A stretch of DNA of 64,000 nt. It comes from Actinomycetota bacterium (GTDB lineage Bacteria > Actinomycetota > Thermoleophilia > Solirubrobacterales > Solirubrobacteraceae). Below are positions 33,432 to 39,666 of this stretch, piece by piece (the first letter of the stretch is position 1; the number at the start of each line of letters is the position of its first letter). Under the pieces are notes generated by a model that made no database searches, was not told the origin of the DNA, and worked only from the letters and a program-made list of their open reading frames with translations. The stretch covers positions 62,001-126,000 of the forward strand of contig JAFDWH010000004.1 in assembly GCA_018268595.1 (NCBI GenBank). The letters are read 5' to 3'. A program made the translations under genes and the position numbers.

Positions 33432-36400
33432 TCACCGGACGCTCCGTCCGCTCGAGGCGCTCCGGGTCCTCTGGTGGTGGTGCCGGTGCGCTCTTCTCTT
33501 CTTGACGCATCTGATGCGCCCCTTGACCTTCTTACGCACGGTGCCTCTGCGGCACTTCCGCACTCTGTGTCTCGGCTTCGCCTGCTTGACGTTGCCGGCG
33601 CTGTGCAAGTCTCTCGACCCAGGGACCGCGCCGGGCGGCACCGAACCCTGAGCCCCCTGACAGCCGTCGCCGGTGCAGACGGTGGGGGCCACCGGGTCCG
33701 GAACCCCGCCGTTCACACGGACGTCGTAGACGTCGTAGTTGCCGTCGTTGTCCCACCCATTGAGCTGCTGGCGCGTCAGGATGAACACGTTTCTCCCGTC
33801 GGCGCTCGCGTCCAGGAAGTACGAGTCGCTCGGATCCTTACCGGTGGAGAGCAAGCGCGGCTCTCCCGTCAGCGTGTCGTACTCGTATGCATCGACTCTT
33901 CCGTTCACGTCGCCTGGCACAAGGGCCTCACGAGTGTTGAAGAACGCCCAGCGCCCGTCGTCGGTAAGCGAGCGGTTGAGGTGCATCGCAGTCACGGCGC
34001 CGCCCGTTCCCGCTCGTACCATGTCGGTGCCATCTGACGTGGCCGGCGCACCGGTTGGGTTACAGCTCGCGCATGACACAGTGCTAGTTGCCTCACTGTA
34101 AACGTACAACTCGCCACACGCCTCCGGTCCACTCTCCAGCGAGCTATTGGACGTGCACGCGTGGCCCTGGTCGTACCCTGTGACACCCTCGCCGCTGTGC
34201 GACATGAACAGCAGGGCCCTGCCGTCAGGCGTAACACGCGCGCGCATGAACCCGTTGATGAAGATCCATTGGGCCCGCGGGAGATTCTGATCCAAGTCAA
34301 TAGAAGGTCTCTGAATGCGGGCGACGTAACTGATGGCCCCATCGCGCCACTCAAAGATTGCATCAGAGCCAACAAACGGCCCTCTCGCTGCGATCTGCCT
34401 CCCGGCAATGAAATAGACAGCGTGCCCGTCGTCGCTAGCGCCGATGACGCCAGCAACATCCCCACCTGACACAAGCACGAGGTTGTGCGGATCGCTGTCA
34501 GGAAGCGCCGAGTCGTACGCGTACAAATGGGGCAGACCCGGAACCGCGTCGTCGGTGAGAGCCTCGGTCGATGTGAAGAAGACTCGGGATCCACTCGGAG
34601 TTGCTGTCCAGAAGGTCGCAGTTGCAGGACCGTTCGGATCTGGCGTTCCCCGCTCTGACGCATTCAGCTTGACCGTTAAGGCGTCAGGCGTGCCATTGTC
34701 GGTTCGCATGTAAAGCGCACCATCTGGCGTCGCGAAGAAAATCCGCCGACCATCATCCGAGATGGTCCGTCGCGTGTACCAACCACGCCCCGATGGACCC
34801 GGTCGCGCCGCCTTTGCACTCGGTGCGGGAGCACCGTCTGGCAGGATGCCTGCAAGCGTGACGGTGCCGTTGTGCCACTCGTAGAGGTAGGGCCCACCAG
34901 CCGGCGCATCGCCTGTGAGTTGGAAGGGCGACTCGAACAGCACGTGGCTGTAGTCAGCAGATGCCCCGACGAACACTGGCTGTGCAACGTCGTAGGTCGG
35001 CAACGCGAAGAAATCCGAGGGCATTTGGAGCGGGGACGAGCAGGCGGGACATGCGGTCACGAGGTCGTAGCTCCCCGGACCATGGGTGCGAAGGTCTCCG
35101 CGCACATACAGATTCAGGACTCTGGCTGTCATCGGGTCCTCAGTCACGGGGGACCAGGCATTAAAGACACCGTGGGACAGGTCGGCCGAGAACTCACCCT
35201 GCCAGAGCGGGTCGACTCCTCCAGTCAGAGCGAGCGCGTTCATCGCCTTTTGCGAGGGCGTGATGCCATGGGTGGTCCACCCGTTTGTTCCCGCCTGGCC
35301 TGTCCGCTGGCTCAGGTACTCAGCCGCCGCCCCTGTGCCTCGCACATCCCCAAACCCGGTCAACGACGCGAAGCTCACGGCGTCACCGCTCGCGCTTGCG
35401 CGGGTGCGCTGAGAATCGCCCATGACATCGCCGCCGTTCTTGTCTGGCGGAGACACCAGCTCATAGGCACGACAGTCAGGCAAAGCAGCCGACGGACCGG
35501 TTCGGAATTGCGCGTTTGAGCAGGCGCTCGCCACAAGTTGCGTATTAGTCGTAAAAGTCTTGTCGTCACCTGCACTCGTCCCGGCGACATTCGTCGCAAC
35601 AAGCCGATAGTGATACGTCGTCCCAGGCTGAAGTCCACCGACAAGACGAAACTCCTCAACGGTCAGGTTCCCTGAGCCGGCGTCCCCATCCTGCGTCACC
35701 GGCACGCTCGTGCCATAGCTCGTCGTCGGCCCGTACTCGAAGTAGTAGGTCGTCGCCGCGTGATGCGGATTGATGAACCCGCGCAGGACGACATGCGACG
35801 GAGTGATGTCCTCAGCCCGGTCACTGTCCACCGTCGGCGCAAGCGCGTCCGTCGTGAACTGGACATCAGACGAGATCACCGGCGCATTGAAGGGCCGCGC
35901 CGCCACCAACCGGACAAAGTACGTCTGGTTCGGGAGGAGATCGGTGAGCGACTGCGACACCGGCACGTCGCTGCTGCCGGAACCTGCGTCTTGATCGCTT
36001 GCGAGGGGGCTCCAGCTCGACTCGTCGGTGCTGATCTCGAAGTGCCAGCTCGTGTCGGTGCCCTGCGGGTTGACCGTGCCACTCGCCGACGCGCTATCGC
36101 TTGTGATGCCGGAGATCGGGTCCATCGAGACGGTCGCGGGCGTCAGTTCGGTCATGATGAAGACGCGCGCGTTGAAGCCGTCCGCCAGGTAGATCGTCGC
36201 TCCGGTCCCGTCGAGTGCGAGCCCAGACGAGTTGTTCGCCGTCGACCCGACGCCGTGCGTGTCGACCAGCGTCCCAGCCGGGTCCACCTCGATCACCCGC
36301 TGCTCAGAGAAGTCCTGCGCCCACTGGGCGATGTAGACGTGGTCGCTCGGGCCGATCGCGATCTCGGCCGGCAAGAAGACGTCGGTCGTGTCGAAGACCT

Positions 36401-37154
36401 CGTCGAACGCACCTGCGCTCGTAAAGCGCTCGACACGGCTGTTGCCCGAGTCGAGGACGTAGATGCGGCCGGTGGAGTCCACGGCGACACGAGTCGGGCC
36501 CTCGAACTGCCCATCCCCCGAACCCTCGGACCCGAACTGCGAGACGTACGCGCCTCTCGAGTCGAACTTCTCGATGCGATGGTTCGACGTGTCGGCGACA
36601 TAGACGGAGCCGTCCGATGGGTCGACCGCGGCCCCTTGGGGACCGCTGAACTGCCCATCGCCTGAGCCGGCGGTCCCGAACTGCGAGACATACGCTCCGG
36701 CGCTCGTGAACTTCTCGACCCGTGCGTTGTTGCCGTCGACCACGTACACCGAGCCGTCGGACTGGTCGATTGCGATCCCTTGCGGCGTGTCGAACTGGCC
36801 GTCCCCGGATCCGCCGACACCCGCTTGACAGGTGCTCGTGCAGGTCTGGAAGGCGCTGCTGCCGTCGGCGACGCCCCAACCCCAGGTGCGGATGAAGTTG
36901 CCGTCCGCGTCGAACTGCTGAACGCGGTTGTTGTACGTGTCGACGACATAGACGTCGCCGCTCGACGCGTTGACTGCAGTCGCTCCAGCAGCAGCGAACT
37001 GCCCCTCGGCCGATCCGGACGACCCGAAGACGCTCTTGACGCCCTTCCCGGCCCACGCAGCGCTCGTGCCGAGTGCAAGCGCAAAGACCGTCACGCATGC
37101 GACCAGCAAGCTCGTCAACGCCCACTTCCGGCGACCGGCAACAGCATCAGACAT
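33432..37154 (-). CDS. Large secreted NHL-repeat/Fn3 surface protein (1240 aa)
   Basis: A signal peptide (LLVACVTVFALALG, cleavage near AWA-GKG) is followed by about five NHL beta-propeller repeats (50-330) with the recurring GSGDGQF...PQGIAID and VYVVDxxNxRVEKF pattern. Two fibronectin-type modules follow (about 335-545; TTYYFEYGPTTSYGT, GLQPGTTYHYRLVATN), then a long second propeller-like region with SxDGRxxFFxT repeats. The C-terminus is a strongly basic tail with KCRRGTVRKKVKG and a second Cys (RCVKK) 13 residues after the first. It is extracellular or wall-associated; the ligand is unknown. Parts of the gene have visibly lower GC than the flanks. GAAGG precedes the ATG. Confidence 0.83.
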   Translation of the reverse strand: MSDAVAGRRKWALTSLLVACVTVFALALGTSAAWAGKGVKSVFGSSGSAEGQFAAAGATAVNASSGDVYVVDTYNNRVQQFDADGNFIRTWGWGVADGSSAFQTCTSTCQAGVGGSGDGQFDTPQGIAIDQSDGSVYVVDGNNARVEKFTSAGAYVSQFGTAGSGDGQFSGPQGAAVDPSDGSVYVADTSNHRIEKFDSRGAYVSQFGSEGSGDGQFEGPTRVAVDSTGRIYVLDSGNSRVERFTSAGAFDEVFDTTDVFLPAEIAIGPSDHVYIAQWAQDFSEQRVIEVDPAGTLVDTHGVGSTANNSSGLALDGTGATIYLADGFNARVFIMTELTPATVSMDPISGITSDSASASGTVNPQGTDTSWHFEISTDESSWSPLASDQDAGSGSSDVPVSQSLTDLLPNQTYFVRLVAARPFNAPVISSDVQFTTDALAPTVDSDRAEDITPSHVVLRGFINPHHAATTYYFEYGPTTSYGTSVPVTQDGDAGSGNLTVEEFRLVGGLQPGTTYHYRLVATNVAGTSAGDDKTFTTNTQLVASACSNAQFRTGPSAALPDCRAYELVSPPDKNGGDVMGDSQRTRASASGDAVSFASLTGFGDVRGTGAAAEYLSQRTGQAGTNGWTTHGITPSQKAMNALALTGGVDPLWQGEFSADLSHGVFNAWSPVTEDPMTARVLNLYVRGDLRTHGPGSYDLVTACPACSSPLQMPSDFFALPTYDVAQPVFVGASADYSHVLFESPFQLTGDAPAGGPYLYEWHNGTVTLAGILPDGAPAPSAKAARPGPSGRGWYTRRTISDDGRRIFFATPDGALYMRTDNGTPDALTVKLNASERGTPDPNGPATATFWTATPSGSRVFFTSTEALTDDAVPGLPHLYAYDSALPDSDPHNLVLVSGGDVAGVIGASDDGHAVYFIAGRQIAARGPFVGSDAIFEWRDGAISYVARIQRPSIDLDQNLPRAQWIFINGFMRARVTPDGRALLFMSHSGEGVTGYDQGHACTSNSSLESGPEACGELYVYSEATSTVSCASCNPTGAPATSDGTDMVRAGTGGAVTAMHLNRSLTDDGRWAFFNTREALVPGDVNGRVDAYEYDTLTGEPRLLSTGKDPSDSYFLDASADGRNVFILTRQQLNGWDNDGNYDVYDVRVNGGVPDPVAPTVCTGDGCQGAQGSVPPGAVPGSRDLHSAGNVKQAKPRHRVRKCRRGTVRKKVKGRIRCVKKRRAHRHHHQRTRSASSGRSVR

Positions 37155-37758: not shown

Positions 37759-37787
37759 ACTGTAGACGCGCATGGCTCTTATTGCAA
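37759..37787 (-). promoter_or_regulatory. Promoter of the lipoprotein gene
   Basis: On the minus strand, TTGCAA (37782-37787) and TACAGT (37759-37764) are separated by 17 bases, 12 bases before the ATG. Confidence 0.6.
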
Positions 37788-37823: not shown

Positions 37824-37852
37824 TTGACACCCAGACTTGAGGTCTGTACGCT
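37824..37852 (+). promoter_or_regulatory. Strong promoter-like element upstream of a structured region
   Basis: A perfect TTGACA (37824-37829), a 17-base spacer and TACGCT (37847-37852) predict a start near 37859. The spacer holds a small inverted repeat (CAGAC/GTCTG). No gene starts soon after, so the transcript has a long non-coding 5' part. Confidence 0.6.
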
Positions 37853-37858
37853 TGCCCC

Positions 37859-38048
37859 CGCGTCGGGGGAACGGACTCTGGGAAGTCCAGAGTGCCCGCT
37901 CGGTCAACACCGGCGTGGCGCCTGCACACGCTGCGCGCCAGGGGGAAATCGCTGCTCGACGTTCCGACCGGTACTCGCCGGTGAGGAGTAAGGGCAGTCT
38001 CACCAGATCGGAGGTGGGTTCATCACTCGACGCAGATCTGCGTCTTTT
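37859..38048 (+). ncRNA. Candidate structured RNA or riboregulatory leader
   Basis: About 190 bases between a consensus promoter and a terminator-like hairpin contain no open frame with support, but several stems: ACTCTGG/CCAGAGT with a five-base loop at 37875-37893, CCGGT-type pairs near 37960-37985, and the final GACGCA/TGCGTC hairpin followed by TTTT. It ends 92 bases before the ATG of a secreted-protein gene on the same strand. It may be a small RNA or a transcription attenuator for that gene. I do not recognise a known riboswitch class. Confidence 0.35.
38029..38048 (+). terminator. Terminator-like hairpin with T-run
   Basis: GACGCA-GATC-TGCGTC followed by TTTT, at the end of the candidate RNA and upstream of the 38141 gene. 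Confidence 0.5.
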
Positions 38049-38140
38049 GGAGGCGACTCGCGGCGCATGGCGCGCCCGCCCCGCGCAACCGGTCCGCGCA
38101 CCGTCGGCCTCGCTACGACTACTCCTTAGGAGACATCTCA

Positions 38141-38788
38141 ATGCGGACACGCAGCAAGCTCCTGCTGACTGCCCTCACCGCGGCCTTCGTCATGGCTGCA
38201 GCCGTGGGCACCGCCAGTGCCGGTCGCTTCTCGACCAGTGAACAGAGGTTTAGAGTCACCTGGTCGAGCCTTGAACTCTCCGGCTTCGCCACCAACGTCA
38301 GGTGCGCGGTCACCCTTGAAGGCTCATACCACTACAGGACGTTCGCGAAGACTCCTGAAGCGCTAGTTGGCTATGTCACTGGCGTCACGGTCAGGCACCC
38401 GTGCACCGGTGGTGAAGCGTGGGCCTTCAATGGCACTGAAAACCTAGAAGGCACTACGCTTAGCAACAGCCTTCCGTGGCACATTCGTTATGAATCCTTT
38501 GCTAGTGCACTACCTGAAATAAGAGAAATCATACAGAGACTGATCGGCTCAAGATTCCTAGTCAAGGCCACGTTCCTCGGCATCACCGTCAGGTGCACCT
38601 ACACCACGTCGACCACGGAACCGGCCAGAGGCCCGGCAAACCGTGAAACGGCGACCAGGGTCTTGACCGAACTGAGAGCAGAAGGCACCATAAGGTCTGA
38701 AACCGGTGGATGCCCAAGCGGAACGTTTGCAGGTTCCGGACCGATCACAACGCCCGCCGGCGCAAGGATCACCGTCACCCTAATATAG
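38141..38788 (+). CDS. Small secreted protein (215 aa), function unknown
   Basis: The protein has a signal peptide (MRTRSKLLLTALTAAFVMAA..., cleavage after TASA) and a mature part of about 187 residues rich in Thr and Gly with Cys pairs in NVRCAV, RHPCTGG, TVRCTY and GGCPSG, suggesting disulfides in an extracellular beta-fold. The ATG follows AGGAG by eight bases. GC is clearly lower than in the flanks. A second, decayed copy lies directly downstream. The tail TGGCPSGTFAGSGPITTP is the best-conserved part between the copies. Function is unknown. Confidence 0.82.
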   Translation: MRTRSKLLLTALTAAFVMAAAVGTASAGRFSTSEQRFRVTWSSLELSGFATNVRCAVTLEGSYHYRTFAKTPEALVGYVTGVTVRHPCTGGEAWAFNGTENLEGTTLSNSLPWHIRYESFASALPEIREIIQRLIGSRFLVKATFLGITVRCTYTTSTTEPARGPANRETATRVLTELRAEGTIRSETGGCPSGTFAGSGPITTPAGARITVTLI

Positions 38789-38828: not shown

Positions 38829-38857
38829 GCACGGGGGCCGAATTTCGGCCCCCGTGC
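38829..38857 (+). terminator. Intrinsic terminator after the secreted protein gene
   Basis: GCACGGGGGCCGAA pairs with TTCGGCCCCCGTGC around a central base, a nearly perfect 29-base palindrome. It is 40 bases after the stop and followed by CCATTCTTG. Confidence 0.7.
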
Positions 38858-39030: not shown

Positions 39031-39666
39031 ATGCGGACACACAGCAAGCTCCTGCTGACTGCCGTCGCCGCCGCCTTCTTCACGGCTGCGGCTGCGGGCA
39101 CAGCCAATGCCGGGCCGCTTCTCGACCAGTGAACAGAGTTCGCGTCGCCTCGTCGAGCCTTCATTCTCGGCTGCTTTACCAATATTAGGTGCTCTCTGAA
39201 ACGCTTGAAAGGTCATACCACTACAGGACGTTCGCTAAGAGCCAGGAAGCCCTAATCGGCTATGTCACTGGCGCCACCATCAGGCATCCGTGCACTGGCG
39301 CAGAAGTCTTGGTATACAACGGCAGCGAACCCGAACCCTAGAGGGCACAGCTCTCTCGACTAGCCTCCCGTGGCATATACGCTACGAGGCCTTCGGCAGA
39401 TTAACATAACAGGATCCACAGAGACTCATAAGTCACTAATAGAATCAGCGTTCCTTGGTGTCACGGTGAGGTGCACCTACACCTCTTCCGCCGGGGAACC
39501 CGCAACGGGTTCGGCAGGGCGCAATGTGACAACAAGGGCGCTCATGGAACTTGGAGCCGAAGGCACCATAAGGTCCGAAACCGGCGGTTGCCCGAGTGTA
39601 ACCTTCCTCGGCAATGGCCCGATCACGACGCCAGGTGGCGGAGCGATCACTGTCACACTAATGTGA
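39031..39666 (+). pseudogene. Decayed tandem copy of the small secreted protein gene
   Basis: The start is intact (MRTHSKLLLTAVAAAFF, cleavage after ANA, with GGGAG upstream), but an extra G at about 39108-39112 shifts the frame and produces a stop after 33 codons. Homology to the 38141 protein resumes in other frames (HYRTFAKS-like, LPWHIRYEAFG) and finally runs without interruption to 39666 (FLGVTVRCTYTSS, SETGGCPSVTF, GNGPITTPGGG). At least two frameshifts separate the parts. This is a recent tandem duplication undergoing decay, or a sequence with assembly errors. Confidence 0.75.

What the first reader, a model, noticed from the sequence alone, without database searches (positions are those of the whole stretch)
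37824..38140. Consensus promoter followed by a structured, terminator-ended region without a gene
TTGACA-17-TACGCT starts a segment with several perfect stems (for example ACTCTGG/CCAGAGT) and ends with GACGCA-GATC-TGCGTC-TTTT 92 bases before a secreted-protein gene. It looks like a small RNA or an attenuator/riboswitch-type leader. No known class fits what I can see.
Basis: partly seen in the sequence, partly recalled or inferred. Interest (0 to 1): 0.55.

Follow-up and report, generated by a model that had tools for sequence, protein, structure and literature searches.

The report
Secreted-protein mRNA leader with ribosome-docking sites
The stretch is best read as the long untranslated start of the messenger RNA for a secreted protein; relatives of this gene carry, in otherwise unrelated leaders, unusually strong ribosome-binding sites that are mostly not followed by a start codon, which may dock ribosomes to protect the message.

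Summary
The promoter is credible: the same layout precedes most paralogs. The region is most likely the 282-nt 5' leader of the secreted-protein gene at 38141, not a free small RNA or a riboswitch: Rfam finds nothing, no homologous leader aligns, covariation is nil. The 6-bp hairpin with TTTT at 38029-38048 is rare here, but no T run follows the matching hairpins of paralogs. Sites of at most -12 kcal/mol occur in 8 of 10 long family leaders against 3 of 57 other upstream regions. GAAAGGGGG occurs four times in the genome, three times in these leaders. Among 26 congener loci with this 9-mer, five more are leaders of signal-peptide ORFs. In 6 of 13 sites a perfect hairpin follows. I propose a STAB-SD-like stabilising or ribosome-docking leader; docking and stabilisation are inferred. 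At 38141 itself the sites are weaker than in several paralogs.

The parts
37824..37852 (+). promoter TTGACA-17-TACGCT of the leader
   Evidence: exact positions; TTG-type promoter found by scan in 12 of 20 family upstream regions, 11 of the 12 with spacer 17, L059 with 18
37859..38140 (+). predicted 282-nt 5' leader (TSS placed 7 nt after the -10; not measured)
   Evidence: leaders of 104-282 nt in 10 family members
37875..37893 (+). perfect 7-bp hairpin ACTCTGG/CCAGAGT near the 5' end
   Evidence: also in the MFE
37917..37939 (+). hairpin directly before distal site 1; partly conserved stem in L030-L033
   Evidence: 93.8% of cells paired, slid versions at most 46.9%, but only one double change and shuffles reach the same; energies not above shuffles
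37940..37951 (+). distal Shine-Dalgarno-like site 1, AGGGGGAAATCG (G4+..ATCG motif)
   Evidence: motif in 6 of 10 long family leaders, shuffle mean 0.39, 0 of 200 reach 6
38005..38016 (+). distal Shine-Dalgarno-like site 2, AGATCGGAGGTG, -12.4 kcal/mol with the 16S 3' end; no ATG/GTG/TTG 3-11 nt behind it
   Evidence: 4 of 100 shuffles; p 0.07; p 0.017; same distance from the predicted TSS in L032 (146 nt)
38029..38048 (+). perfect 6-bp hairpin GACGCA-GATC-TGCGTC plus TTTT, 12 nt after site 2; terminator-like
   Evidence: unique in the window; a hairpin at this place also in L032, L033, L035, L067, L059, without a T run
38128..38132 (+). own Shine-Dalgarno AGGAG of the gene
   Evidence: sequence; -7.3 kcal/mol
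38141..38788 (+). gene of the secreted 215-aa protein, family expanded in this genome
   Evidence: AlphaFold model all-beta after an N-terminal helix, mean pLDDT 81
37759..37787 (-). divergent promoter TTGCAA-17-TACAGT
   Evidence: pattern also in L059, L060, L066; none in the eight 20-kb control stretches

Best explanation
37824-38140 is the promoter and long structured 5' untranslated leader of the secreted-protein gene at 38141. The leader carries two Shine-Dalgarno-like sites (37940-37951 and 38005-38016) that are not followed by a start codon and lie between hairpins. By analogy with STAB-SD leaders, 30S subunits would dock there and, with the hairpins, block 5'-to-3' decay by RNase J and keep ribosomes close to the true start, giving a long-lived messenger. 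Shown: promoter layout, family-wide enrichment of distal SD-like sites, the 16S tail, presence of an RNase J-type gene. Inferred: transcription start, ribosome docking, stabilisation.
For: Promoter layout recurs before paralogs. Distal sites: summed duplex energy with the 16S tail in 10 long leaders -136.5 against -91.0 in shuffles, z -7.8, 0 of 500 reach it; reversed tail z -4.2, permuted tails -1.9 and -2.7. E of at most -12 in 8 of 10 family leaders against 3 of 57 other upstream regions, Fisher 1e-6; on a wider set 12 of 19 family members. GAAAGGGGG: 4 sites in the 3.57-Mb genome, 3 in leaders of this family (contexts). In congeners 5 of 26 read loci with this 9-mer are leaders of signal-peptide ORFs. 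A perfect hairpin 3-15 nt after the site in 6 of 13 sites against 17 of 286 sites elsewhere, p 1e-4. Of the strongest site in each of 10 leaders only that of L038 has ATG/GTG/TTG 3-11 nt after the G run (my reading of the rows; L033 has a TTG at 12). 16S tail GGATCACCTCCTTTCT. RNase J-type gene 538.7 bits, cut-off 400. STAB-SD mechanism as described in PMC4113751 (passages).
Against: No transcript data. The sites are not unusually unpaired in the predicted folds. At L030 alone the site is only modestly unusual (p 0.017 to 0.07), and L031, L032 and L040 are weak too. Members L037, L056, L057, L071 and L075 lack a strong site. Part of the signal is purine runs as such (reversed tail z -4.2). In L038 a GTG follows the site, and in the congener loci L119 and L114 an ATG and a TTG stand 1-2 nt behind it, so short leader ORFs are possible there. 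The ATCG behind the G run is not explained by longer pairing to 16S. The sites were noticed in these leaders before they were tested.
Confidence: 0.5

Rival explanations
1. Transcription attenuator: the hairpin 38029-38044 with TTTT stops transcription unless GCGTCG at 37860 pairs with CGACGC at 38028, a mutually exclusive long-range stem, in response to a ligand, protein or ribosome.
For: The perfect stem plus TTTT is unique in the window and absent from 1000 shuffles. The MFE of 37859-38055 forms the competing long-range stem instead of the hairpin.
Against: Only four T, not listed by the terminator scan; no T run after the corresponding hairpins of the paralog leaders; with the rest of the leader included the MFE contains the hairpin and not the competing stem; no Rfam match.
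Confidence: 0.15
2. A free small RNA of about 190 nt, 37859-38048.
For: Promoter, stems and terminator-like end.
Against: The promoter layout is shared with paralogs, where it leads to the coding sequence; no homologous stretch in the genome or in 40 relatives beyond short GC-rich matches; no Rfam family.
Confidence: 0.1
3. Upstream open reading frame: the distal sites are genuine Shine-Dalgarno sequences for short leader peptides whose translation regulates the gene.
For: The distal site is stronger than the gene's own SD in 9 of 10 long leaders. In L038 a GTG follows and a 19-codon frame ends before the gene (sequence).
Against: Of the strongest site in each of 10 leaders only L038 has ATG, GTG or TTG 3-11 nt downstream (rows). 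I saw no shared peptide when reading frames by eye; no tool tested this.
Confidence: 0.15
4. A riboswitch of an undescribed class.
For: Long leader with several stems.
Against: Leaders of five close paralogs give a covariation term of +0.29 kcal/mol and no supported fold; c-di-AMP riboswitches are found elsewhere in this genome with the Rfam model, so absence of a match here is informative for that class.
Confidence: 0.05

Closest known systems
STAB-SD of Bacillus thuringiensis cry3A (5' mRNA stabiliser)
   Same: Shine-Dalgarno-like site far upstream that can pair with the 16S 3' end and does not direct initiation (PMC4113751, passages); similar distance (cry3A about 129 nt, here 73-206 nt).
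   Different: Different phylum by my inference; two sites in L030, L032 and L033; a perfect hairpin follows in 6 of 13 sites; no decay data here.
aprE-type leader (5' stem-loop plus ribosome binding, not translation)
   Same: Stem-loops beside a ribosome-binding site in the leader of a secreted-protein messenger; seen here only as a title in reference lists.
   Different: In aprE, as I recall, the binding site is the gene's own; here it is additional and distal.
Mycobacterial katG polypurine stabiliser
   Same: Actinobacterial polypurine sequence complementary to 16S that stabilises mRNA (PMC2358910, abstract and passages).
   Different: It lies four bp before the start codon and needs translation; here it is 70-210 nt upstream.
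c-di-AMP (ydaO) riboswitch RF00379
   Same: G-rich GGGGGA and GGGTGA-like pieces in leaders of secreted-protein genes.
   Different: No model match to these leaders, while six over-threshold members exist elsewhere in the genome.

Membership tests
STAB-SD type 5' stabiliser | SD-like sequence in the 5' UTR complementary to the organism's 16S 3' end | tested here: met
   family-wide z -7.8; at L030 alone p 0.017 to 0.07
STAB-SD type 5' stabiliser | does not direct translation initiation (no start codon behind it) | tested here: inconclusive
   by sequence only: L030 and 8 other of 10 strongest family sites lack ATG/GTG/TTG 3-11 nt downstream (rows); no initiation assay
STAB-SD type 5' stabiliser | lies near the 5' end of a stable (processed) transcript | not testable with these tools
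   no RNA data; strongest sites 29-154 nt from the predicted TSS
STAB-SD type 5' stabiliser | loss of the site shortens mRNA half-life | not testable with these tools
   needs mutants
STAB-SD type 5' stabiliser | host has a 5'-to-3' exonuclease of RNase J type | tested here: met
   TIGR00649 538.7 bits over cut-off 400
riboswitch (any Rfam class) | match to a curated covariance model | tested here: not met
riboswitch (new class) | conserved structure with covariation among homologs | tested here: not met
   covariation term +0.29; one small stem before site 1 has one double change
intrinsic terminator / attenuator | stem followed by a T run, conserved at the leader position | tested here: inconclusive
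   present once, only TTTT, no T run seen in paralogs

The most novel reading that the evidence does not exclude
A start-codon-less ribosome-docking module (distal anti-SD site followed by a perfect hairpin, often with G4..ATCG) is a lineage-wide leader element of an expanding secreted-protein family in this genus, kept while the rest of each leader has diverged beyond alignment.
Probability: 0.35. Interest if true: 0.6.

Novelty: new variant of a known kind. Interest (0 to 1): 0.42.

Why it matters
As far as I know, STAB-SD sites have been studied in few leaders. A whole paralogous family with distal ribosome-binding sites and mostly no start codon would be a natural series for asking whether 30S docking, rather than translation, sets messenger life in GC-rich bacteria that have RNase J. 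It also warns that strong SD sequences in GC-rich genomes can mislead start-site annotation.

Tried and rejected
Rfam at gathering and permissive thresholds: nothing for this region. c-di-AMP riboswitch, suggested by the G-rich pieces: rejected because true members are found elsewhere by the same model and these leaders do not match. DNA similarity of the leader in its own genome, 40 relatives and plasmids: only short GC-rich matches or none. Named relatives by protein in genome contigs: none. Pfam and NCBIfam for the secreted protein: no match over a curated cut-off. Foldseek against PDB: no match at E <= 0.001. Consensus fold of five paralog leaders: unsupported. Pairing with a longer 16S tail does not raise the signal. 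Accessibility of the sites: not special. Folding energy of the stretch before site 1: not above shuffles. An unusual start codon ATC, suggested by the ATCG motif, was considered and dropped because it lies only 0-4 nt from the G run and no shared peptide was seen by eye.

Statistics are post hoc: the distal sites were noticed in the family before the tests. Rows left out of the 10-leader set: L068, L069 and L075 (leaders of 55, 33 and 47 nt), L036, L041, L042 (second or later genes of tandem clusters), L037 (pseudogene), L056, L060, L061, L071 (no promoter by the scan), L057, L058, L062 (not scanned for a promoter). The L032 promoter (TTGCTC-17-TAGAAT) was not found by the scan and was set by eye. 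Control genes come from a crude GC3-based caller that covers 0.66-0.90 of the sequence.

Full report
Observation. All named elements are present at the stated places. The region holds more perfect hairpins than shuffles, and the stem with TTTT is the only one of its kind in the window, but the global folding energy is ordinary (z -1.83 for 37859-38055; +0.28 for the whole leader). The standard scan lists neither the promoter nor the terminator because of its thresholds.

Context. The downstream gene 38141-38788 encodes a 215-aa protein with a signal-peptide-like start. The profile search lists 21 matching stretches in the own genome, some of them pieces of one gene or of the broken copy at 39031-39666, and matches in 3 of the 60 other genomes searched, all in the same genus. 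The AlphaFold model is all-beta after an N-terminal helix, mean pLDDT 81, with no PDB match at E <= 0.001. A divergent promoter TTGCAA-17-TACAGT lies at 37787-37759 on the minus strand; the same pattern stands upstream of family members L059, L060 and L066 and not in the eight 20-kb control stretches. In L059, L061 and L066 the divergent frame begins with ELVS/ELVP-type sequence like part of the large ORF 33432-37154, and L060 has a similar divergent frame (my reading; no alignment was run).

Promoter. A scan for a TTGACA-like hexamer, 16-18 nt, TAnnnT upstream of 20 family members found it in 12; the spacer is 17 in 11 of these and 18 in L059 (the scoring favours 17 by half a point). L032 has TTGCTC-17-TAGAAT, set by eye. 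The leaders that follow are 104-282 nt in ten members and 33-55 nt in three (L069, L075, L068).

What the leaders share. The leaders do not align: BLAST of the L030 leader against paralog upstream regions found only the promoter part of L031 and short pieces (L032, L033 and L039 were on the wrong strand in that search). They nevertheless share sites complementary to the 16S 3' end, which in this genome reads GGATCACCTCCTTTCT. In the ten long leaders the summed best duplex energy outside the last 30 nt is -136.5 kcal/mol against -91.0 (sd 5.9) in dinucleotide shuffles, 0 of 500 reaching it; the reversed tail gives z -4.2 and two permuted tails -1.9 and -2.7, so part of the signal is purine runs as such. 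Single-leader p values are 0.002-0.22. Energies of at most -12 occur in 8 of 10 leaders against 3 of 57 upstream regions of other genes. On 19 family members examined without regard to promoter, 12 reach -12 and 10 have p <= 0.05; those short of -12 are L031, L037, L040, L056, L057, L071 and L075.

Whole-genome check. GAAAGGGGG occurs four times in 3.57 Mb on both strands. Three are in leaders of this family (L034, L038, L067). The fourth precedes a small hydrophobic ORF as its SD. In six congeners the 9-mer occurs 34 times; 26 of these were read as loci. Five of the 26 (L107, L114, L119, L120, L121) are leaders of signal-peptide-like ORFs, the 9-mer lying roughly 70-200 nt before the start; four of the five have a promoter-like pair upstream by the scan. 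Two of these proteins (L114, L119) match the family profile weakly (E 5.7e-5 and 1.4e-4 in a small set), the other three do not. The remaining 21 show no such context in the short print. The reversed control pattern is nearly as frequent as the 9-mer in the genus, so it is the context and not the count that is unusual.

Module anatomy. In L030, L032 and L033 two sites lie 65-70 nt apart; in L030 and L032 the second starts 146 nt after the predicted start. A perfect hairpin of at least 6 bp begins 3-15 nt after the site in 6 of 13 sites; downstream shuffles give 0.47 on average and never reach 6 in 1000. Elsewhere, 17 of 286 equally strong sites have one (own site removed; p 1e-4). G4+..ATCG occurs in 6 of 10 leaders against 0.39 in shuffles; its role is unexplained. 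Perfect hairpins in the ten leaders number 30 against 7.9 in shuffles, counting nested registers.

Mechanism. Only one of the ten strongest sites has a canonical start codon 3-11 nt behind it, so they do not look like ordinary start sites. The closest described behaviour is the STAB-SD of cry3A, where a 30S subunit on a distal SD blocks RNase J1 (PMC4113751, passages). The genome has an RNase J-type gene. A polypurine stabiliser is known in mycobacteria (PMC2358910, abstract and passages). I therefore favour a docking or stabilising leader. Docking and stabilisation are inference. Evidence at 38141 alone is modest and leans on the family.

Rivals and limits. An attenuator remains possible because the competing stem of GCGTCG at 37860 with CGACGC at 38028 excludes the terminator hairpin in the short fold, although the longer fold has the hairpin. 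There is no RNA evidence of any kind. A search for papers holding both Solirubrobacter and untranslated region returned none; that and searches are the only literature searches behind any statement of novelty, and only listings were seen.

Noticed in passing
window 39031-39666: Second, broken copy of the secreted-protein gene directly downstream, with in-frame stops and frameshifts.
   Followed up: partly
window 37759-37787 (-): Divergent promoter with a conserved spacer, shared with three relatives and absent from the control stretches; possible common control of the beta-propeller-like gene and the secreted protein.
   Followed up: partly
window 38829-38857: Perfect 14-nt inverted repeat with a 1-nt centre, terminator-like, after the gene.
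   Followed up: no
G000:C26:46807 (L099): GAAAGGGGGTGATGCATATG precedes a 20-codon hydrophobic ORF, with a degenerate second copy just downstream.
   Followed up: no
L048-L053: Six over-threshold c-di-AMP riboswitches in the same genome.
   Followed up: no
six leaders, e.g. window 37941-37951: G4+..ATCG motif in 6 of 10 leaders; not explained by longer 16S pairing.
   Followed up: partly
window 48383 (-): GGGGGAAACGAGGGGGACAGG shortly after a TAGGCT -10-like hexamer.
   Followed up: no
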